A DNA stretch of 43,551 nucleotides from the NCBI GenBank assembly GCA_945883435.1, contig CAMCXK010000023.1, positions 1 through 43,551 of the forward strand. The letters run 5' to 3'. Below are positions 6,822 through 43,551 of the stretch, in pieces (the stretch's first letter is position 1; each line of letters starts with the position of its first letter). The stretch is from Chthoniobacter flavus. GTDB lineage: Bacteria; Verrucomicrobiota; Verrucomicrobiia; Chthoniobacterales; Terrimicrobiaceae. The position numbers were made by a program, and so were the translations under genes. The notes beneath the pieces are model-generated. The model was not told where the DNA came from and ran no database searches. It saw only the letters and a list, made by a program, of their open reading frames with translations.

Positions 6822-7652
6822 TCATGTGAAGGAATCCTCAATGGTGCGAAGGCGGTGGAGACGCGCGCCAAGCCGGGGAACACAGGCGATCAGCGCCCTT
6901 GTGTAAGGGTGCCGGGGGGCTCCGAGAACCTCTTCGGTGCGCCCTTGCTCGACAATCTCGCCGCGAAGCATGACAGCCACATTTTCGCAAAGGCCGCGGA
7001 TGATCCCGAAATTGTGGGTGATCAGGATCAGCGCCATGTTGTGCTCGGCGCGCAGGCGGCGGAGCTGGTCGAGAATTTGCTTTTGAATGGTGACATCGAG
7101 GGCCGTGGTGGGTTCATCGGCCACCAGCAACCGGGGACGGCAGGCCAGGGCCATCGCAATCATGGCCCGCTGCTGCATGCCACCGCTCAGTTGGTGTGGA
7201 TAATCCCACATGCGTCGCGCGGGATCGACGATGCCCACGGCATCGAGCCAGCGCACGATCTCGGCGTCCAAATCCCGGACATCCGTCCGGTGGAGCCGGA
7301 TTCCCTCGGCGATCTGGCTGTGAATCGTGAAAACCGGGTTGAGCGAAGTGCCCGGTTCCTGAAACACGTAGGCGATTCCGCCGCCCCGGAGCGCTCGCAG
7401 CGGCTTGTCGGGAAGGGTGAGCATCTCGTGCCCCTCGAAACGGATCGAGCCGCCGGCATACTCCGCCGGGGGGGTGGGAAGCAGGCGGGCGAGAGAGAGG
7501 GCGGTGACACTTTTTCCGCTGCCACTCTCGCCGACAATGGCCAGGGACTCGCCCGCCCCGAGCGAGAAAGACACATTCCGGACGGCATCCACTGTTCCGG
7601 TGCGGCTCCGGAATCGGATGGACAGGTTTTGAACGTCAAGCAGCGGATTCAT
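6822..7652 (-). CDS. ABC transporter ATP-binding protein, OppD/DppD type
   Basis: A 276-residue nucleotide-binding subunit of the peptide/nickel/opine importer class. Motifs are Walker [10 protein letters not shown]-loop [12 protein letters not shown], signature LSGGMQQR, Walker [13 protein letters not shown] and switch His in ITHNFG. The C-terminal [16 protein letters not shown] is typical of OppD/DppD/OppF ATPases. The ATG at 7650-7652 overlaps the end of the permease gene by 4 bp. The usual second ATPase (OppF/DppF) is not next to it: the following gene is thyA. The transported substrate cannot be told from the sequence. Confidence 0.9.
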
Positions 7653-34352: not shown

Positions 34353-34622
34353 ATGAACAAAGTCCAACTCACCGAAGCCGTCCAAAAATCCCTCGGATCC
34401 ACCAAGGCCGACGCCGAGCGCGCCGTGACCGCTGTCATCGATGCCATCAAACTTGGCGTCAAAAAAACCAAAACCGTCCAACTCATCGGCTTCGGCACCT
34501 TCAAGGTGAGCAACCGCAAAGCCCGCACCGGTGTCAACCCCAAGACCGGCCAGAAAATCAAAATCAAGGCTTCAAAGACCGTGCGCTTCGTGCCCGGCAA
34601 GGCGTTCAAGGGAGCCATCTAA
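34353..34622 (+). CDS. HU-family DNA-binding protein
   Basis: An 89-residue histone-like protein: MNKVQLTEAVQKSLGSTKADAERAVTAVIDAI, then the beta-arm region with VQLIGFGTFKVSNRKARTGVNPKTGQKI and the closing ASKTVRFVPGKAFKGA. HU bends DNA and helps compact the chromosome. It has its own 86-bp upstream region after mrdA and a strong terminator after it. Confidence 0.95.
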   Translation: MNKVQLTEAVQKSLGSTKADAERAVTAVIDAIKLGVKKTKTVQLIGFGTFKVSNRKARTGVNPKTGQKIKIKASKTVRFVPGKAFKGAI

Positions 34623-34642
34623 ATTTCCCCTCCGCCATCGAG

Positions 34643-34677
34643 AAGACCCGGCCCGCCCAGCGGTCCGGGTCTTTTCA
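34643..34677 (+). terminator. Rho-independent terminator after the HU gene
   Basis: A perfect 9-bp inverted repeat, AAGACCCGG (34643-34651) and CCGGGTCTT (34665-34673), with a 13-base loop. It is followed by TTCATTT, so the transcript ends in a T-rich run. It lies 20 bp after the HU stop and separates it from the secretion cluster. Confidence 0.82.
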
Positions 34678-34731: not shown

Positions 34732-34782
34732 ACAAGTCGAAAAATCCTCTCCGGAGTGACGATTTCGTCACATTCGACTTGT
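34732..34782. repeat. 10-bp inverted repeat bracketing the tpsB upstream box
   Basis: ACAAGTCGAA (34732-34741) and TTCGACTTGT (34773-34782) are perfect inverted repeats separated by 31 bp. The space contains the PHO-box-like 17-mer, which starts its own small hairpin GTGACG-ATTT-CGTCAC (34756-34771). It may form a nested hairpin or mark a second operator. Nothing like the outer arms was seen near the second box at 43085. Confidence 0.6.
34755..34772 (+). promoter_or_regulatory. PHO-box-like operator upstream of tpsB
   Basis: AGTGACG-ATTT-CGTCACA: two 7-mers spaced by an AT-rich 4-mer, so that GTGAC and GTCAC repeat every 11 bp. This is the architecture of the E. coli PhoB box. The 17 bases from 34756 are 15/17 identical to 43085-43101 before tpsA. 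It ends 48 bp before the tpsB start. No obvious -10 was seen downstream. Confidence 0.6.
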
Positions 34783-34820
34783 TGTTGTTCCCGCCCCATC
34801 CGCCACACTTCCCTCCCTCA

Positions 34821-36443
34821 ATGACCAACCACCCGACCCTGCTGCGCCGGTTCAGGCTGACCGCTTTCGCGGCGTTGGCCTCGGGTTGTGCTGTCATTCA
34901 AGCCTCCCCCCTCGACGAGAATCCCCCGCCCGTCCCGCCGCCGGAGCCTCCGCAGACGATTTTGATCCGCGAATACCGGGTGGTGGGGGTGCGGACCCTC
35001 CCGCGCGATGCGGTGGACAAGGCGCTTTACCGTCACCTCGGCCCCGGCTGCTCGGCCGAGGATGTCGAAAACGCCCGTGCCGACTTGGAAAAAGCCTACC
35101 ACTCGGCGGGCTTTCAAACGGTTTCTGTCTCGGTGCCGCCTCAGGGCACGGCCTCGGGTGTCATCGTGCTCCAAGTCACCGAGGCCACGATCGGCAAGCT
35201 GCGGGTGAGGGGATCCCGATTCCACGACATCGAAAAAATCAAGCGCCAGGCACCGGCTCTGGCCGAAGGCACGGTTCCAAACTTCAATGACGTGCAGCGA
35301 GACCTCATTGCCCTGAACCAATCCGGCAACCTCCAGGTCACGCCCTCGCTGGCTCCCGGCGAGATTCCGGGCACGATCGACGTCGAACTGGCCGTTCAAG
35401 ACAAGTTTCCCCTGCATGGCAGCATCGAACTCAACAACCGCTACAGCGCGAATACCACGCCGCTCCGTCTCGATGCGTCCCTGCGATACGAAAACCTCTG
35501 GCAACTCGGACACACCATCGGCGCGGCCTTCCAAATCGCTCCCCAGCGCCCGAGCGATGCGTTGATTTTCTCCGGCTATTACATCGCCAAAGTCCCGAAG
35601 GTTGATTGGGTCTCGCTCATGCTGCAAGCCACGCGCCAGAACAGCGAGGTCTCGACGCTGGGTGGAACCGACTCTCTCGGAAACGGTGAAATCTACGGCG
35701 GCCGCTTCCTGTTCAACCTGCCTTCCAAAACAGGTTTCTATCACTCGGCCAGCCTCGGCGTGGACTACAAGGATTTCGCCCAGGACCTCGTGACACCCGA
35801 TGGTTCGACGATTTCCTCGCCGCTTCAATATTGGCCGTTCTCGATCAACTACAACGCCACCTCGCTGGGTAAACATTACGAAACCGCCTTCAATGCCGGC
35901 GTGACGTTCTCGTTCCGGGGCACCGGCACGCAGGAGGCCATCGATTTTGAAAACCGCCGCTACAACGCGAATGCCAACTTCTTCTACTTCCGGGGCGGTA
36001 TCGATCACACCCAAAAGCTGCCGTGGGATTTTCAGCTTCTTGCCTCGATCCAGGGACAGGCCACCGAGAATCCGCTGGTGGACACCGAGCAATACAGCCT
36101 TGGCGGCTTGAACACCGTTCGCGGCTACCTCGAGTCGGCCGTCGTCGGCGACAATGCCATCGCCGGTTCGCTGCAATTCCAATCCCCCTCGCTGCTCGCG
36201 TGGCTGCCCGAGGGCAACGAGTGGCGCGTTTTCGCCTTTCTCGACGCCGGGCGCTCCTGGCTCAACGACCCGCTGCCGGAGCAAACCTCCGAGTTCACGC
36301 TCTGGAGCTACGGTTTCGGCACCAGCATCCGTCTCGTGAAGTATCTCAACGGCGAATTTATCATCGGCATCCCCCAGATCACCCAAACACCCTCGAATGC
36401 GGGCGATCCGCTTTTCACCTTCCGCATCTCCGCGGAACTCTAA
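34821..36443 (+). CDS. Two-partner secretion outer-membrane transporter (TpsB, FhaC/ShlB type)
   Basis: A 540-residue Omp85-superfamily transporter that should translocate the exoprotein starting at 43144. After a signal peptide (RRFRLTAFAALASGCAVIQA) and a Pro-rich stretch, there is a POTRA domain (LIREYRVVGVRTLPRDAVDKALYRHL...VTEATIGKLRVRG), a second POTRA-like part (FNDVQRDLIALNQ), then a 16-strand-type beta barrel with LGGLNTVRGYLES (the conserved VRGY motif of loop L6) and FAFLDAGRSW. The ATG at 34821 is used because it gives a signal peptide and keeps the regulatory box outside the gene. exbB follows after 6 bp. Confidence 0.9.
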   Translation: MTNHPTLLRRFRLTAFAALASGCAVIQASPLDENPPPVPPPEPPQTILIREYRVVGVRTLPRDAVDKALYRHLGPGCSAEDVENARADLEKAYHSAGFQTVSVSVPPQGTASGVIVLQVTEATIGKLRVRGSRFHDIEKIKRQAPALAEGTVPNFNDVQRDLIALNQSGNLQVTPSLAPGEIPGTIDVELAVQDKFPLHGSIELNNRYSANTTPLRLDASLRYENLWQLGHTIGAAFQIAPQRPSDALIFSGYYIAKVPKVDWVSLMLQATRQNSEVSTLGGTDSLGNGEIYGGRFLFNLPSKTGFYHSASLGVDYKDFAQDLVTPDGSTISSPLQYWPFSINYNATSLGKHYETAFNAGVTFSFRGTGTQEAIDFENRRYNANANFFYFRGGIDHTQKLPWDFQLLASIQGQATENPLVDTEQYSLGGLNTVRGYLESAVVGDNAIAGSLQFQSPSLLAWLPEGNEWRVFAFLDAGRSWLNDPLPEQTSEFTLWSYGFGTSIRLVKYLNGEFIIGIPQITQTPSNAGDPLFTFRISAEL

Positions 36444-36449
36444 CATCTC

Positions 36450-38408
36450 ATGACCATCCAACACCTCCTCGCCACAGCCACTGCAGCCCTCCTGCTCCAG
36501 GCGGCCCAAATCCCGGCCTCCGCCTGGTGGGACAAAGCCTGGACCGCCCGCGTTCCGGTCACCATCGACACCACATCCAACGGTGTTGCCATCCCCGACG
36601 CCGCTGGCAACGCCTCGGTGCTCATCCGCCTCCACTCGGGAAACTTCGACTTCGCCACCGCGAAGGAGGACGGCACCGATCTCAGATTTCTCTCGGAGGA
36701 CGACAAAACCCCCTACGACCACCGCGTGGAAAAGTGGGACTCGCTCATGAACGAGGCCTTCGTTTGGGTCAACGTTCCCGATATTCAACCCGGCGTTGCC
36801 AAAAAGCTCTGGCTTTACAGCGGCAATCCCGAGGTCACCGGAGAAAATGCCGCCAACCCGAAACAAGCCTACGATGCGGACACGATCCTCACCTTCCACT
36901 TCAATGCGCCGACTCCCTCGGACGCGACCCAAAACGCCAACAACGCGACCTCGGGAGGAACCCTCTCCGAAGGCGCGCTGATCGGCCCCGGGATGCGCCT
37001 GCTGGGCAATACGGCGATTCGTATTCCCGCCTCGGACTCTCTGAAAGCCGACGCAGGCCAGCCCTTCACCTTGGCCACTTGGCTGAAGCTCACCGCCCCG
37101 GCGGAAAAGGGTGTGCTGTTCGACTGGGGGGATGCCAGCGGGCGCTTTCAAATCGCCTTTCAAGACAATGCTCCGGTCCTCTCGATTCTTTCGGCCTCGG
37201 GCTCTTCGAAGTCCTCGCCTTCCGAACCCCTTCCTCTCAATGTCTGGAAGCACTTGGCCGTGGTTTCCGACGGCACCACCACCAAGCTTTTTGTCGATGG
37301 CAAGGAAGCTACCTCCCTCGCCGCCCCGTTGCCGGCGATCGTTTCCGAAGCCGTCCTCGGGGCTGATGCGGATGGCAAAAACGGCCTTGTCGGCGAAATG
37401 GACGAATTCTCGCTGGCCAAATCCGCCCGCTCGCCGGGCTGGATCCAGCTGGCCTATGTCGGTCAAGCCGGCAACGAAGCGAGCAAAAAGCTGATTGCCA
37501 TGGGGGAAGCCGAAGGAGGCCACGGCGGCGGGCATAGCGGCGCCCTCGAGCACGTCATGCTCTTCGGCGACATCGCCAAAAACATGATGTTCGACGGCTG
37601 GATCGCGGTGGCGGTCTGCGTGGTCATGATGATCGCCGGTTGGACAGTCGCGGTTGTGAAATTTGCCAACCTCAAAAAAATCGCCATTGGCAACAAGGAA
37701 TTCCAAACCCACTGGCGCCATGTTTCGGCCGACCTGACCGCGATCGATCTGGACAATCCCGAAGCCGCAAAAACCCTCGGGGGCAAGCTCACCAAAAAGG
37801 GCCTCAAACTCATGGCGGATTCGCCGCTTTACCACGTTTACCACGTGGGATCGGAGGAAATCCGCCACCGCCTCGGCTTGGGCAAGAACAAGGGACAGGG
37901 GCTTTCGGCCCGGTCGATCCAAGCGATTCGCGCCGCTCTCGATGCCGCCCTCGTCCACGAGCAACACCGCCTCAACAATGGCATTGTTTACCTCACCGTC
38001 AGTATCGCCGGGGGTCCCTATGTGGGACTGCTCGGAACGGTTGTCGGCGTTATGATCACCTTTGCGATCATCGCGAAATCCGGTGAAGTGGATGTCAACT
38101 CGATCGCCCCCGGTATCGCCAGTGCGCTTTTGGCGACCACGGTCGGTCTCCTCGTCGCCATCCCGGCGCTCTTCATGTATAGTTTTCTGAACACCCAAAT
38201 CAAAGGTGTCATCAGCTCGATGCAGGTGTTCATTGACGAGTTCGTCGCCAAAGTGGCTGAATTTTATCCTCCTCCGGGCGAAGCGGGTCTGACGGTTCCG
38301 ATCCGCCAAGTCCGCACGCCCGAGGAAGCCGCCCGCAATGAGGAACTGGGCGGCAACGAAGCCAAAACCATTCTGGCCTCGGTCACCTCGAAATCCGCCA
38401 AAGCCTGA
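36450..38408 (+). CDS. ExbB/TolQ-type proton channel with N-terminal DUF2341 and LamG-like domains
   Basis: A 652-residue fusion. After a signal peptide, WWDKAWTARVPVTIDTTSNG to about residue 140 is a DUF2341 domain. Residues 145-350 form a concanavalin/LamG-like domain (FTLATWLKL, NVWKHLAVVSDGTTTKLFVDGKE, VGEMDEFSLAKSARS). The C-terminal part is MotA/TolQ/ExbB: a helix near 382-402, then a long cytoplasmic loop and two helices in GGPYVGLLGTVVGVMITFAII and IASALLATTVGLLVAIPALFMYSF. The first half would project into the periplasm, where plain ExbB has only a short N-terminus. Its stop overlaps exbD (TGATG). Confidence 0.92.
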   Translation: MTIQHLLATATAALLLQAAQIPASAWWDKAWTARVPVTIDTTSNGVAIPDAAGNASVLIRLHSGNFDFATAKEDGTDLRFLSEDDKTPYDHRVEKWDSLMNEAFVWVNVPDIQPGVAKKLWLYSGNPEVTGENAANPKQAYDADTILTFHFNAPTPSDATQNANNATSGGTLSEGALIGPGMRLLGNTAIRIPASDSLKADAGQPFTLATWLKLTAPAEKGVLFDWGDASGRFQIAFQDNAPVLSILSASGSSKSSPSEPLPLNVWKHLAVVSDGTTTKLFVDGKEATSLAAPLPAIVSEAVLGADADGKNGLVGEMDEFSLAKSARSPGWIQLAYVGQAGNEASKKLIAMGEAEGGHGGGHSGALEHVMLFGDIAKNMMFDGWIAVAVCVVMMIAGWTVAVVKFANLKKIAIGNKEFQTHWRHVSADLTAIDLDNPEAAKTLGGKLTKKGLKLMADSPLYHVYHVGSEEIRHRLGLGKNKGQGLSARSIQAIRAALDAALVHEQHRLNNGIVYLTVSIAGGPYVGLLGTVVGVMITFAIIAKSGEVDVNSIAPGIASALLATTVGLLVAIPALFMYSFLNTQIKGVISSMQVFIDEFVAKVAEFYPPPGEAGLTVPIRQVRTPEEAARNEELGGNEAKTILASVTSKSAKA

Positions 38409-38806
38409 TGGACGCCGGCGACGACAAATCCTACGACGATATCAACGTCACCCCGATGGTGGACTTGTATCTCGTGCTCTTGTTGATTTTCATCATCATG
38501 ACCACCGCCGGTGTCCAAGGCACCAAAGTGGATCTGCCGAAAGGCAGCAAGGCACCCGCGATCGGAGGGCCGAAAAGCAAGGCGATCACGGTGAACAACG
38601 AAGGCAAGGTCTTCCTCGACACCGTGCCGGTTTCCCTTGAGGAACTGGAGGCGAAACTCAACGCCCACAAGGCTCAAGTGCCGGAATTCCCGGTGGTCGT
38701 TCGCGGCGATGGGGCCACCCAGTATCAAATGGTCATGAGCGTTCTCGATGTGATCGGCCGTTGCGGCATCACGGAAATCGGCCTTGCCACCCAAGCTCCG
38801 AAATAA
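38408..38806 (+). CDS. ExbD/TolR-type biopolymer transport protein
   Basis: A 132-residue partner of the ExbB-like channel: short cytoplasmic start (YDDINVTPMVDLYLVLLLIFIIMT) containing the transmembrane helix with the proton-carrying Asp (MVDL), followed by a periplasmic domain (VDLPKGSKA, ITVNNEGKVFLDTVPV, VVRGDGATQYQMVMSVLDVIGRCGI). It couples proton flow to TonB movement. The start overlaps the exbB stop by one base. Confidence 0.93.
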   Translation: MDAGDDKSYDDINVTPMVDLYLVLLLIFIIMTTAGVQGTKVDLPKGSKAPAIGGPKSKAITVNNEGKVFLDTVPVSLEELEAKLNAHKAQVPEFPVVVRGDGATQYQMVMSVLDVIGRCGITEIGLATQAPK

Positions 38807-38815
38807 CCAACCCAC

Positions 38816-39511
38816 ATGGCGGACCCCGAAGACAACGACGACGATCCGGGCTTTTTCCAAAAGCACAAGGTCAAGCTGATCCTCGGAGCCCTTTTGCTCG
38901 GCGGGTTGGCTACGTTCGTTTTTCTGTCTCCCAAGGAGGCTCCCCAAAAAAAGTCGTCCATGGCGATGATTTCCCTGCCGCCGCCCCCGCCGCCTCCTCC
39001 ACCCCCGCCGCCCCCGCCTCCTCCTCCGAAGGAACAGCCACCCGAACCGGAACAACAAGAGGAAACCTTCACACCCGAGGAGGCGGCCGAACCGGAGCCC
39101 CAATCCGCCGATCCCGAACCCGCTCCCATGGGCACGAATATCGAAGGCGATGGCCCTGATTCCTTCGGCCTGGCCAAAGGAGGCGGAGGAGGAACCATCG
39201 GTGGTCTCGGAAAAGGCGGCCGCAAAGGCTCGAAATACGGAGGTTACGCAGCGCAAGTTCAATCCTCTGTTGTCCAAGCTCTTCGGAGTCACAAAAAAAC
39301 CAAGTCGGTGGCCATGAATGTCACCGCTCGCATTTGGGTGGACGCCTCCGGTCGTGTCACCAAAACCACTTTAAGCGGCTCTTCGGGAGACCCTGCCACC
39401 GATGCCGCCATCAAACAGGAAATTCTCACCGGCTTGCAATTGCAGGCTCCCCCCCCCGAGGGCATGCCGATGCCCATTGTGATGAGACTGAAAGCCACCC
39501 GACCCAACTAA
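38816..39511 (+). CDS. TonB-family energy transducer
   Basis: A 231-residue protein. A short acidic cytoplasmic start (MADPEDNDDDPGFFQKH) precedes a membrane helix (LILGALLLGGLATFVFL). Then come a run of 17 prolines, a Pro/Glu-rich linker, a Gly-rich hinge (AKGGGGGTIGGLGKGG), and a C-terminal TonB-type domain (VVQALRSHKKTKS...VTARIWVDASGRVTKTTLSGSSGDPATD). It is the third member of a dedicated ExbB/ExbD/TonB unit. The proline run should make translation depend on EF-P. Confidence 0.88.
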   Translation: MADPEDNDDDPGFFQKHKVKLILGALLLGGLATFVFLSPKEAPQKKSSMAMISLPPPPPPPPPPPPPPPPPKEQPPEPEQQEETFTPEEAAEPEPQSADPEPAPMGTNIEGDGPDSFGLAKGGGGGTIGGLGKGGRKGSKYGGYAAQVQSSVVQALRSHKKTKSVAMNVTARIWVDASGRVTKTTLSGSSGDPATDAAIKQEILTGLQLQAPPPEGMPMPIVMRLKATRPN

Positions 39512-39515
39512 TCCC

Positions 39516-41510
39516 ATGATCCTCTCCCGCAAATCCCTTCTGCTCACCCTGAGCCAAGTTCTGGCCATCGCCCTCGTGGCCCGGGCTCAGACGAACGAAA
39601 ACCCGCCTGTGGCCTCGGCGCCAGAGTCTCCCGCTCCCGCGGAATCGCCCCGCCCGGAAGCTCCCATGCCTGTGGTCGAGGGGGACAAGGCTTCGCAGGG
39701 AGGTTCCGAGGACACCCAAGGCATCGCCGCGCCAGTGCCCCCTCCACCCACCGCGACGGTTGAAACACTTCTTCCGCCCTCCACAGCCGCCTCCACGCCA
39801 ACGGGAAATGTGACCATCAACCTGATTCACAAGCTGGTCCAACGTGGCATTCTCACCCGCGAGGAGGCGGATGACATGATCCGGCAAGCCGAGGCGGAGG
39901 CGGAAGCCGTCCGTGCTCAATCGCAAACCGACATGGTTGCAATCGCCCAGGCCGCCGCCGTTCAAGTGGCGGCCTCCTCCACGCCGGAGTCCGATCTGCC
40001 CGCCGCCTCCCCGGAGGACATCCGCGTGACCCACATTCCACAGCCTGTTAAGGACCAGATCAAAGAGGAAATCAAATTGGAACTCGCCACCAGTCGCGTG
40101 AGTCAAGAACTGGCGGCCACATTCAAGCTTCCGAAATGGGTCGAGAAGGCCAAGCCTACGTTTGACCTGCGATTCCGCTATGCAGGCACTTTCTTCCCGA
40201 CTGGCAACGACGCATCCGGTGCCTTCCCGAATTTCAATGCCATCAATACCGGCGCGCCCTTCGACACGACCGGCACGCAATTCGCGCCGCAACTCAACGT
40301 CGATCAAAACCGCAACCAATACCTCGCCCGGGCCCGGTTTGCCTTGGATTTCGATATGGGTGAGAATTTCTCCAGCGGCTTCCGGATCGCGACCGGCAGC
40401 AACAACAACCCGGTTTCCACCAACCAAGGGATCGGAGCGGTCAGCTCGGCAACCCAAGGCCAAGGCGGCGATTTCAGCAAATACGCCATCTGGCTCGACC
40501 GGGCCTTCATTCGCTACGATTACGATTACGAAGACATCGTGGGAGCCACCGCGTGGGTGGGCCGTTTTGAAAACCCGTTCTTCTCGACCCGCCTGACTTG
40601 GGATGACGATTTGGGATTCGATGGCACGGCCCTGACCCTGAAGGCCGATGTGACCGAAAATTTCCAACCCTATCTCACGGGCGGTGCGTTTGTGGTTTAT
40701 AACACCGACTTCAACTTCTCCTCCAACCAGCCGGAGAAGTTTGCGAGCTACGACAAGTATCTCTTCGCAGGCCAGACCGGCTTCGAGTGGCGCATCACCG
40801 AGGACTGGACTTGGAAAACCGGCGCGGCCCTCTACTGGTTTCACAACATCGAGGGTAAACTCTCCGATCCCTACACCCCGCTTACCGTCAATGATGCGAG
40901 CAACACGGATAACAGCCGCCCTTCGTTCGCCCAAAAAGGTAACTCTTACATGGCGATTCGCAACATTGTTCCCGACGCGAGCAACGACTTCGGAGCGATC
41001 AATCAGTGGCAATATTACGGCCTCGCCACCAAATTCACCGAACTCGCCCTCACCACCCAGCTCGACTACGACGGCTTTGAACCCGTCCGCGTCTCCCTCG
41101 TGGGCGAATACGTGCAAAACCTTGCCTTTGACGAGTCCGATATCAGCGCCATCGCCGTTAACAACCGCGGTCCGGTGGATACGAACGAACTCGACACCAT
41201 CGGCGCTTTTGAAGGCGATCCTTACGGCTGGTATGTCGACCTCCGGGTCGGCACGCCCGCCCTGAAAAAGCGGGGCGACTGGCTCATCTACGGCGGCTAC
41301 CGTTGGATCGGCTCCGATTCGGTGGTGGACGGCTTCAACGACTCCGACTTCGGCGGCGGCGGCACCAATATGATGGGCTTCACAGTCGGCGGATTTCTCT
41401 CGCTGTCCGAAAACGTCTACCTCGGCGTCCGGTGGATGGGGGCGGAAAGCATCGCCGGCCCTCAATACGACACCAACATCTTCTATCTCGAAATCGACTC
41501 CAAATTCTAA
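39516..41510 (+). CDS. Putative outer-membrane porin
   Basis: A 664-residue protein with signal peptide (SLLLTLSQVLAIALVARA) and a Pro/Ala-rich stretch. A helical segment follows (LIHKLVQRGILTREEADDMIRQAEAEAEAV), probably trimerising or wall-contacting. A beta-barrel begins near FDLRFRYAGTFFP and ends at the terminal aromatic residue of YLEIDSKF, as barrel proteins do. It fits the 'putative porin' family (Porin_5 type, from memory). With TonB, ExbB and ExbD adjacent, it may admit or export something connected with the secreted partner. No plug domain or TonB box was recognised. Confidence 0.85.
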   Translation: MILSRKSLLLTLSQVLAIALVARAQTNENPPVASAPESPAPAESPRPEAPMPVVEGDKASQGGSEDTQGIAAPVPPPPTATVETLLPPSTAASTPTGNVTINLIHKLVQRGILTREEADDMIRQAEAEAEAVRAQSQTDMVAIAQAAAVQVAASSTPESDLPAASPEDIRVTHIPQPVKDQIKEEIKLELATSRVSQELAATFKLPKWVEKAKPTFDLRFRYAGTFFPTGNDASGAFPNFNAINTGAPFDTTGTQFAPQLNVDQNRNQYLARARFALDFDMGENFSSGFRIATGSNNNPVSTNQGIGAVSSATQGQGGDFSKYAIWLDRAFIRYDYDYEDIVGATAWVGRFENPFFSTRLTWDDDLGFDGTALTLKADVTENFQPYLTGGAFVVYNTDFNFSSNQPEKFASYDKYLFAGQTGFEWRITEDWTWKTGAALYWFHNIEGKLSDPYTPLTVNDASNTDNSRPSFAQKGNSYMAIRNIVPDASNDFGAINQWQYYGLATKFTELALTTQLDYDGFEPVRVSLVGEYVQNLAFDESDISAIAVNNRGPVDTNELDTIGAFEGDPYGWYVDLRVGTPALKKRGDWLIYGGYRWIGSDSVVDGFNDSDFGGGGTNMMGFTVGGFLSLSENVYLGVRWMGAESIAGPQYDTNIFYLEIDSKF

Positions 41511-41516
41511 TCTGTC

Positions 41517-42146
41517 ATGAAAAAACACATCCTTCTTGCCGTTCTGCTTGCCTCCTCGACGGTTCTTCAAGCCGCTGACGAGGATCCCACCGCCAAGTTC
41601 CGCGAGGCCCTCCGCGATGCGATGCTCAAACTCCGGGACGCCCAAGGCCAACTCGCCAACGCTCAAGCCGCCCAATACGCCGCCGAGGCAAAAGCGACCG
41701 AACTCACCGCAAAATCCGATGCTCTTGCCAAGGAACTCGCCGAGGAACGCAACACCTCGACCAACAAAATCGCCGAACTCACCAAAACCATTGCTGAGCG
41801 CGACGGCTCAATCCTCGAACTCACCGCCGCCCTTCAGAAGTGGAAAACCTCCTACGGCCAAGTCACCCAACTCGCCTCCAAACGCGAATCCCAACGCGCC
41901 CAACTCGAAGCGGCCAACCAAAAACTGCAGCGCCAGCTTGAAGACCAACAGGCCAAAAATATCGAAATGTATCATGCCGCGATGGAAGTGCTTGAACGCT
42001 ACGAGAAATTCGGCTTCGGCGACGCCCTGCTCGCCCGCGAACCCTTCACGGCCGCCCAGCGCGTGAAATTCCAAAACCTCGTTCAAGACCTGACCGACAA
42101 AATCGCCGCCGCCCGCTCCGCCACCGACGAAGTCAAAAAAAACTAA
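41517..42146 (+). CDS. Periplasmic coiled-coil protein
   Basis: A 209-residue protein with signal peptide (MKKHILLAVLLASSTVLQAADE), then an almost unbroken alpha-helical coiled coil to about residue 165 (LAKELAEERNTSTNKIAELTKTIAERDGS, RAQLEAANQKLQRQLEDQQ), and a short globular end (YEKFGFGDALLAREPFTAAQRVKFQNLVQDL). No enzyme motif. It lies between the porin and the PpiC gene, so a scaffold or chaperone role for the exported partner or porin is plausible. Function unknown. Confidence 0.82.
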   Translation: MKKHILLAVLLASSTVLQAADEDPTAKFREALRDAMLKLRDAQGQLANAQAAQYAAEAKATELTAKSDALAKELAEERNTSTNKIAELTKTIAERDGSILELTAALQKWKTSYGQVTQLASKRESQRAQLEAANQKLQRQLEDQQAKNIEMYHAAMEVLERYEKFGFGDALLAREPFTAAQRVKFQNLVQDLTDKIAAARSATDEVKKN

Positions 42147-42157
42147 CTCCATTTTCA

Positions 42158-42187
42158 GATCAGTCCAACCGGCCTGATCAGTCCAAC
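42158..42187. repeat. Short tandem direct repeat before the ppiC-like gene
   Basis: GATCAGTCCAAC occurs at 42158-42169 and again at 42176-42187, an 18-bp period, in the 57-bp gap between the coiled-coil and PpiC genes. CCGGCC separates them. The first copy with the following CTGATC also makes a 6-bp inverted repeat. Meaning unknown; it could be an operator or a slipped duplication. Confidence 0.5.
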
Positions 42188-42203
42188 AAAATCACCCATA
42201 CCC

Positions 42204-43082
42204 ATGCTCCGCAACGCCACTCTCGCCCTGCTCGCCGCCACATCACTCGCCCTTTCCGCACGCGCCGCCGATACTGTCATCGCCCGTGCCGGCGACCGCG
42301 AAATCAAAGCTTCGCAACTGCTTCCCTACCTCTCCAGCCTCTCGGAGTCGGAAAAAGCCGCGCTGACTCAAAACCCGGCGGCGCTCAGCCAAGCGGTTCG
42401 GACCCTCATCTTGCAACAAGTCCTCCTGAAAGAAGCCCTCGCCGCCGATTGGGATGACAAGCCCGAGATCGAAGCCCTGCTCGCCCGCGTGCGCGACGCC
42501 GCCATCGCGGAAAGCTATCTCGAATCCGTCACCAAAGTCCCTGCCGATTTCCCCTCCGATCAAGACATCCAGGCGCTTTACGAAGCCCGCAAAGCCGAAC
42601 TCGCCCTGCCCAAGCAATACCGCCTTGCCCAAATCTTCCTCGCCAATGGCACCGACCCCGCTCAAGCCAAGGCCAAAGCCGAAGCGCTCGCCAGGCAAGT
42701 GAAATCCGGCGACTTTGCGGCTCTGGCCAAGGCCAATAGCGACGAACCCCGCAGCGCTGCCAATGGAGGGGAAATCGGTCTTTTGCCCGAAGAGTCGATC
42801 CAACCCGCCATTCGCAAAGCGCTCACTGGTCTCGCCAAGGGCTCGGTCGCCGGTCCGGTCGAACTCGGCGATGGTTTGTATTTCGTCAAAATCCTCGACA
42901 TCCAGGAGCCTCGCACCGCCACGCTTGCGGAGGTCAAAGACCGCCTTGCTCAAGCCCTCCGTGCCGAGCGCGCCACGCTGAACCGCCAGGCCTACATCAA
43001 CCGATTGCAATCCCAGTCCCCCATCGTTCTCGACGAAATCGCCCTCCCCGGCCTTCTTCAGCCCGATGCAAAAAAAAACTGA
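42204..43082 (+). CDS. PpiC/parvulin-type periplasmic peptidyl-prolyl isomerase
   Basis: A 292-residue protein with signal peptide (MLRNATLALLAATSLALSARAA), an N-terminal SurA-like helical chaperone region (ALSQAVRTLILQQVLLKEALAADW), and a parvulin domain at about residues 135-235 (KQYRLAQIFLANG, SGDFAALAKANSDEPRSAANGGEIGLLPEE, GPVELGDGLYFVKILD). It should help fold or keep unfolded an envelope client. The client is likely the TpsA exoprotein that begins 61 bp downstream, or the porin. Confidence 0.9.
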   Translation: MLRNATLALLAATSLALSARAADTVIARAGDREIKASQLLPYLSSLSESEKAALTQNPAALSQAVRTLILQQVLLKEALAADWDDKPEIEALLARVRDAAIAESYLESVTKVPADFPSDQDIQALYEARKAELALPKQYRLAQIFLANGTDPAQAKAKAEALARQVKSGDFAALAKANSDEPRSAANGGEIGLLPEESIQPAIRKALTGLAKGSVAGPVELGDGLYFVKILDIQEPRTATLAEVKDRLAQALRAERATLNRQAYINRLQSQSPIVLDEIALPGLLQPDAKKN

Positions 43083-43083
43083 A

Positions 43084-43101
43084 TGTGACAATTTCGTAAC
43101 A
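43084..43101 (+). promoter_or_regulatory. PHO-box-like operator upstream of tpsA
   Basis: TGTGACA-ATTT-CGTAACA: two 7-mers with a 4-bp AT spacer, GTGAC and GTAAC 11 bp apart. Matches the box before tpsB at 15 of 17 positions. It begins one base after the ppiC-like stop and ends 42 bp before the tpsA ATG. It would let tpsA have its own promoter under the same regulator as tpsB. Confidence 0.6.
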
Positions 43102-43143: not shown

Positions 43144-43551
43144 ATGACCATGCCTTCGCGCTCCGACCGCACCCGTTATTCCCTGCGCGCCTACCGCGCC
43201 TTGTCGTCAATGCCCCGCTCCCGTTGCCTCTGCACCCTTCTGCTCCTGTTTGCCCTTGTTTGGTCCACTCCGGTTGGGAGCTTGCAGGCGGGCGATATCC
43301 TCCGGGGCGGGGCTTCCGGAGCTTCCAACGCCAAGCGCAACGCGACCGCCCGTGCCAACGCTGGAACCGCCGCCGCCGAAGCCGCCAATCTTCGCGCCCA
43401 AGACCGTCTCGCCCGCACCACCAAGGCCGTCAACGACATGCGCGCCCTCCAAGCCTCCGCACGGGCGGCAGCCAAAGCCAATCTTATTCCGAATGGTCTC
43501 ACCGAAGGTGGACTTAAAGTCCTCACAGGCGCCAACGCGAAGTGGCAAGGC
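43144..43551 (+). CDS. Filamentous-haemagglutinin-like exoprotein (TpsA), N-terminal part only
   Basis: The first 136 residues of a protein that runs off the right edge. The leader is long: about 30 Arg/Ser-rich residues, then a hydrophobic core (CLCTLLLLFALVWSTPVGSLQA). It is followed by DILRGGASGASNAKRNATARANAG and an Ala/Arg-rich helical stretch to about residue 113, then LIPNGLTEGGLKVLTGANAKWQG. The last segment looks like the entry to a TPS secretion domain. Identification rests on this N-terminus plus the TpsB and export genes upstream. ATG at 43150 is an alternative start. Full length and activity cannot be seen. Confidence 0.75.
   Translation, partial: MTMPSRSDRTRYSLRAYRALSSMPRSRCLCTLLLLFALVWSTPVGSLQAGDILRGGASGASNAKRNATARANAGTAAAEAANLRAQDRLARTTKAVNDMRALQASARAAAKANLIPNGLTEGGLKVLTGANAKWQG

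What the first reader, a model, noticed from the sequence alone, without database searches (positions are those of the whole stretch)
34755..43101. Matching PHO-box-like sites before both tpsB and tpsA
GTGAC(G/A)ATTTCGT(C/A)ACA occurs at 34756-34772 and 43085-43101 (15/17 identical), 48 and 42 bp before the two TPS start codons. Both copies read as 7-mer, ATTT, 7-mer with an 11-bp period, like the PhoB box, whose second half also varies between GTCA and GTAA. The sites lie 8.3 kb apart and nothing else links them except partner genes of one secretion system. The gene set recalls the P. aeruginosa pdt locus, which I remember as PhoB-regulated. A phosphate-starvation-induced secretion system is the simplest reading.
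Basis: partly seen in the sequence, partly recalled or inferred. Interest (0 to 1): 0.75.

Follow-up and report, generated by a model that had tools for sequence, protein, structure and literature searches.

The report
Phosphate-starvation switch before secretion genes
Two matching DNA sites in front of a bacterial protein-export gene pair are copies of the same site that stands in front of this bacterium's phosphate-uptake genes, so the export system is very probably switched on when phosphate runs out, as a similar one is in Pseudomonas aeruginosa.

Summary
The two 17-mers are where stated (15/17 identical, 48 and 42 bp before the start codons) and are far beyond chance. The decisive check asked for was run. 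The exact tpsA site recurs in the same genome 48 bp before pstS of a pstSCAB-phoU operon, and another copy precedes a metallophosphoesterase of the PlcP/LpxH type. About ten places match in all, against none for the reversed-pattern control. A matrix learned only from 15 pstS promoters of related genomes gives TGTTACGAAnTTGTAAC. Applied blind to the window, it ranks these two sites first (28.0 and 26.0 bits; next place 10.8). The tpsB box is kept in 16 of 17 genomes of the genus and family. The tpsA box sits right after the ppiC stop in genus-mates, degenerate in two. The genome has one full-length PhoB-type regulator, next to a histidine kinase. The cluster tpsB-exbB-exbD-tonB-porin-coil-ppiC-tpsA matches P. 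aeruginosa PA0690-PA0699, whose pdtA promoter has a proven PhoB box. Best reading: a phosphate-starvation-induced two-partner secretion locus in an uncultured Verrucomicrobiota, a new member of a known kind. Expression and PhoB binding are inferred, not measured.

The parts
34756..34772 (+). PHO-box-like site 1, before tpsB (perfect dyad GTGACGA-TT-TCGTCAC; GTNAC cores 11 bp apart)
   Evidence: 26.0 bits with the pstS-trained matrix; conserved in 16 of 17 genus and family genomes
43085..43101 (+). PHO-box-like site 2, between the ppiC stop and tpsA; identical to the site before pstS
   Evidence: 28.0 bits; same position in genus-mates
34821..36443 (+). tpsB: outer-membrane transporter (POTRA_2 + ShlB)
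   Evidence: Pfam
36450..38408 (+). exbB with N-terminal DUF2341 and LamG-like domains fused to MotA_ExbB
   Evidence: Pfam
38408..38806 (+). exbD
   Evidence: Pfam
38816..39511 (+). tonB-like (proline-rich, TonB_2 C terminus)
   Evidence: Pfam
39516..41510 (+). Porin_5 outer-membrane porin
   Evidence: Pfam E 1e-174
41517..42146 (+). exported coiled-coil protein
   Evidence: sequence; weak PspA-like match below cut-off
42204..43082 (+). ppiC: exported peptidyl-prolyl isomerase (SurA/PpiC type)
   Evidence: Pfam Rotamase
43144..43551 (+). tpsA, N-terminal 136 residues (cut by contig end)
   Evidence: 69% identical to the start of the G003/L157 TpsA, which carries the Pfam TPS secretion domain
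34353..34622 (+). HU-like gene upstream; a GC-rich hairpin (34640-34676) separates it from tpsB

Best explanation
Both sites are PhoB boxes: two GTNAC-containing half-sites on an 11-bp period, the form the PHO box takes in this group of Verrucomicrobiota. When phosphate is scarce, the Pst/PhoU/PhoR pathway would phosphorylate PhoB. PhoB would then bind as a head-to-tail dimer and activate two promoters. One reads the tpsB-exbB-exbD-tonB-porin-coil-ppiC operon. The second, just behind ppiC, boosts tpsA, the secreted partner. Shown here: the sites, their identity with the pstS site, their conservation, the gene cluster, and one full-length PhoB-type regulator beside a histidine kinase. Inferred: PhoB binding, activation and low-phosphate induction.
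For: Exact copy of the tpsA site 48 bp before pstS in pstSCAB-phoU. De novo motif from 15 pstS promoters, log-likelihood 195 against 58-65 for shuffles. That matrix ranks the two window sites first, next place 10.8 bits. In 20 related loci (about 248 kb) every hit of 13 bits or more lies before tpsB or tpsA. tpsB box in 16 of 17 genus and family genomes. Reversed-pattern control near zero in 58 genomes. Only one full-length PhoB-family match in the genome, next to a histidine kinase. A TPS pair without ExbBD/TonB in a Rhodocyclaceae genome has no box. PhoB binding and pho-box mutagenesis at pdtA of the matching P. aeruginosa locus (PMC4971064).
Against: No box before phoB. G004 keeps the cluster but has no tpsB box. 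The tpsA box is degenerate in two genus-mates and absent where ppiC and tpsA nearly touch. The motif is close to a dyad, so the sequence alone does not prove a direct-repeat binder. The PhoB homologue scores below the NCBIfam PhoB cut-off (235.8 against 296.2). Several own-genome boxes precede genes with no evident phosphate role.
Confidence: 0.88

Rival explanations
1. The sites bind a different, dyad-recognising regulator (for example a CRP/FNR- or GntR-type protein) that also controls pst.
For: The tpsB copy is a perfect dyad and most copies are near-dyads; the best-scoring strand varies between genomes.
Against: The consistent association is with pstS (15 of 15) and a PlcP-like gene. The half-sites are 11 bp apart centre to centre, so GTGA and TCAC are 8 bp apart and not the 6 of CRP. 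One relative (L123) has three GTNAC cores in a row at 11-bp steps, as head-to-tail binders allow.
Confidence: 0.06
2. Only the tpsB box is functional; the copy before tpsA is a decaying or accidental site and tpsA is transcribed by read-through from the operon.
For: The tpsA box is degenerate in G003 and G010 and absent in another genus, where ppiC and tpsA lie a few bases apart.
Against: In this genome the tpsA copy scores highest in the window (28.0 bits) and is letter-identical to the pstS site; the same position carries a strong box in G007 and G013.
Confidence: 0.12
3. Chance resemblance, or a dispersed repeat unrelated to regulation.
For: The tpsB copy lies within a larger inverted repeat.
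Against: Reversed-pattern control 0 against 11; conserved at position across genomes; flanks differ between copies.
Confidence: 0.01

Closest known systems
P. aeruginosa PUMA3/pdt locus (PA0690-PA0699: pdtA, phdA, pdtB, exbB2, exbD2, tonB4, PA0696 porin, PA0697, PA0698, PA0699 PpiC)
   Same: TPS pair with exbB, exbD, tonB, a putative porin and a PpiC isomerase, tpsB through PpiC in the same order; a pho box before tpsA (pdtA) (PMC7035377, PMC4971064).
   Different: tpsA is last here and not first, with no phdA or YbjN gene; boxes stand before both tpsB and tpsA. The pdt genes also need the sigma factor VreI (no vreAIR-like genes were looked for here). Box letters differ (TGTNAC against the TGTCA-type repeat of proteobacteria, the latter from general knowledge).
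Proteobacterial PHO box (PhoB site)
   Same: Two 7-bp repeats, 4-bp A/T-rich spacer, 11-bp period, before pst genes.
   Different: Half-site is itself near-palindromic (TGTNACR) and the whole is a near-dyad.
PlcP lipid-remodelling genes under a Pho box (PMC4796936)
   Same: A metallophosphoesterase gene with the box directly upstream (C1:57533).
   Different: Only superfamily-level assignment here; LpxH models match below cut-off.

Membership tests
PhoB-controlled promoter (PHO regulon) | Two half-sites on an 11-bp period with an A/T-rich spacer | tested here: met
   GTNAC cores at 0 and +11 in 32 and 33 of 34 sites
PhoB-controlled promoter (PHO regulon) | Same site before pst/pho genes of the genome | tested here: met
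   pstS, identical 17-mer; phoB has none
PhoB-controlled promoter (PHO regulon) | PhoB/PhoR and PhoU present in the genome | tested here: met
   C2:1304-1996 matches PhoB best (below the equivalog cut-off), kinase adjacent; PhoU over cut-off
PhoB-controlled promoter (PHO regulon) | PhoB binding and low-phosphate induction | not testable with these tools
   needs experiment
Two-partner secretion (type Vb) | TpsB with POTRA + FhaC/ShlB barrel and TpsA with N-terminal TPS domain | tested here: met
   TpsB. TpsA is cut by the contig end; the TPS domain is shown in the 69% identical relative
pdt-type (PA0690-PA0699) locus | TPS pair linked to exbB-exbD-tonB, porin and PpiC genes | tested here: met
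   with PMC7035377; conserved across the order. Sequence homology with the Pseudomonas proteins was not compared directly
pdt-type (PA0690-PA0699) locus | Dependence on an ECF sigma factor (VreI) | not tested
   not searched

The most novel reading that the evidence does not exclude
The tpsB-exbBD-tonB-porin-ppiC-tpsA cluster is a dedicated phosphate-starvation module in which an ExbBD/TonB motor drives or assists export of the TpsA protein, shared across phyla from Verrucomicrobiota to Pseudomonas and serving phosphorus acquisition rather than host attack.
Probability: 0.25. Interest if true: 0.7.

Novelty: new member of a known kind. Interest (0 to 1): 0.45.

Why it matters
It gives a PHO-box definition for a mostly uncultured branch of Verrucomicrobiota. 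It also shows that a secretion locus known in P. aeruginosa as a phosphate-controlled virulence factor has a conserved, phosphate-linked counterpart in environmental bacteria. That suggests the older role is a response to phosphate shortage and not to a host, which can be tested in a cultured relative.

Tried and rejected
CRP-like reading: rejected on half-site spacing. Chance or scattered motif: rejected by reversed-pattern controls. Box before phoB: looked for, none within 4 mismatches. Canonical CTGTCAT-type box before tpsB in distant relatives: one weak case only. Conservation of the tpsB box beyond the family: mixed, 5 of 12 order-level loci at 13 bits or more, mostly absent elsewhere in the class. 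Pfam searches failed because of a wrong frame and were repeated. The Pseudomonas locus itself was not fetched; its anatomy is taken from papers.

Full report
Observation. The two 17-mers are exactly where reported: GTGACGATTTCGTCACA at 34756-34772 and GTGACAATTTCGTAACA at 43085-43101, 48 bp before the tpsB ATG (34821) and 42 bp before the tpsA ATG (43144). The window is one whole contig (C23) of a 2.84-Mb, 126-contig genome that is 97.6% complete. Close relatives are metagenome-assembled Verrucomicrobiota labelled Spartobacteria, Terrimicrobiaceae or Chthoniobacter.

Is it more than chance? A search of the whole genome with up to two mismatches gave 11 matches (10 places); the reversed pattern gave none. 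A looser core pattern gave 8 places against 0 for its control. Across 58 genomes of the order, the similar pattern TGTNACNNWNNYGTNACA is common in the genus and family, and its control is almost always 0 or 1.

What stands behind the other copies? The exact tpsA 17-mer occurs at C66:6766-6782, 48 bp before a PstS-family protein (TIGR02136, over its cut-off). It is followed by pstC- and pstA-like reading frames (identified by position and size only), pstB (TIGR00972, over its cut-off) and phoU (over its cut-off). A one-mismatch copy precedes a calcineurin-like phosphoesterase of the LpxH/PlcP superfamily; plcP genes are phosphate-controlled in other bacteria (PMC4796936). Other copies precede PEP-CTERM-type proteins, an exported 498-residue protein without a family, a large Ig/TIG-domain protein, a protein kinase and a pilin-like protein. 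One more lies at C34:15914, whose downstream gene was not assigned to a family. A PhoB-type regulator lies at C2:1304-1996, adjoining a histidine kinase that runs to the contig end. It is the only full-length PhoB-family match; the other matches cover mainly the receiver domain. It scores best against NCBIfam PhoB but below the equivalog cut-off. No box was found before it.

Independent test. To avoid circularity, a motif was learned de novo from the promoters of 15 pstS genes of this and related genomes, with no tps sequence in the training set. It converged on A.TGTTACGAA.TTGTAAC from all of the best-scoring starts, with log-likelihood 195 against 58-65 for shuffled sequences. Scanned over the 43.5-kb window, this matrix ranks 43085 first (28.0 bits) and 34756 next (26.0). 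Apart from opposite-strand readings of these same sites, the next place scores 10.8. Before tpsB it finds a box in 16 of 17 genomes of the genus and family with an intact upstream region, this genome included; only G004 lacks it. At the order level 5 of 12 loci reach 13 bits. In 20 related loci (about 248 kb) every hit of 13 bits or more lies before tpsB or tpsA.

The tpsA site. Directly behind the ppiC stop codon, genus-mates G007 and G013 carry strong boxes (23.2 and 25.9 bits). G003 and G010 carry degenerate ones at the same place (10.1 and 8.0 bits). Two genomes of another genus have ppiC and tpsA almost abutting and no box there. In G025 tpsA lies divergently upstream of tpsB with one box between them. 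The second box is therefore likely real in this genome but evolves faster than the first.

Anatomy. In 34 sites the two GTNAC cores lie at 0 and +11 in 32 and 33 cases. One relative has three cores in a row at 11-bp steps (L123). An extra TTG is conserved at +26 to +28 and may be a promoter element; its role is not resolved. These features fit a head-to-tail PhoB-type dimer, but the near-dyad symmetry means the sequence alone does not prove it.

The gene cluster. Pfam confirms TpsB, ExbB (fused to DUF2341 and LamG domains), ExbD, TonB, Porin_5 and a PpiC-type isomerase. The tpsA fragment is cut by the contig end; its 69% identical relative carries the TPS secretion domain. The order tpsB-exbB-exbD-tonB-porin-coil is kept throughout the order and in other families of the class; ppiC and tpsA follow in most of these loci but were not detected in some. 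A TpsB homologue from a Rhodocyclaceae genome that lacks the ExbBD/TonB/porin genes has no box. The P. aeruginosa locus PA0690-PA0699 has the same components (PMC7035377). Its pdtA promoter carries a pho box that is bound by PhoB and essential for expression, together with sigma VreI (PMC4971064).

Conclusion. This is most likely a PhoB-controlled two-partner secretion locus, a new member of a known kind in a phylum where two searches of the open literature turned up no PHO-box analysis of such a system. What the secreted protein does, and whether ExbBD/TonB energises the export, remains open.

Noticed in passing
window 34732-34741 and 34773-34782: A perfect 10-bp inverted repeat (ACAAGTCGAA/TTCGACTTGT) encloses the tpsB box; the strand folds better than shuffles (z -3.4).
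   Followed up: partly
window 36450-38408: ExbB carries an N-terminal DUF2341 plus LamG-like lectin domain fused to the proton-channel domain.
   Followed up: no
L016 (C34) 482-498; L014 (C110) 2756-2772; L018 (C43) about 7023-7039: Boxes before a Ser/Thr kinase gene, a PEP-CTERM protein and a choice-of-anchor I PEP-CTERM protein: possible PHO regulon members of unknown role.
   Followed up: partly
38 aligned sites, +26 to +28 after the start of the first GTNAC: A conserved TTG about 10 bp behind the box in pstS, tpsB and other promoters.
   Followed up: partly
L113 (G025) 543-1546: tpsA is divergent from tpsB there, with a single box between the two genes.
   Followed up: no
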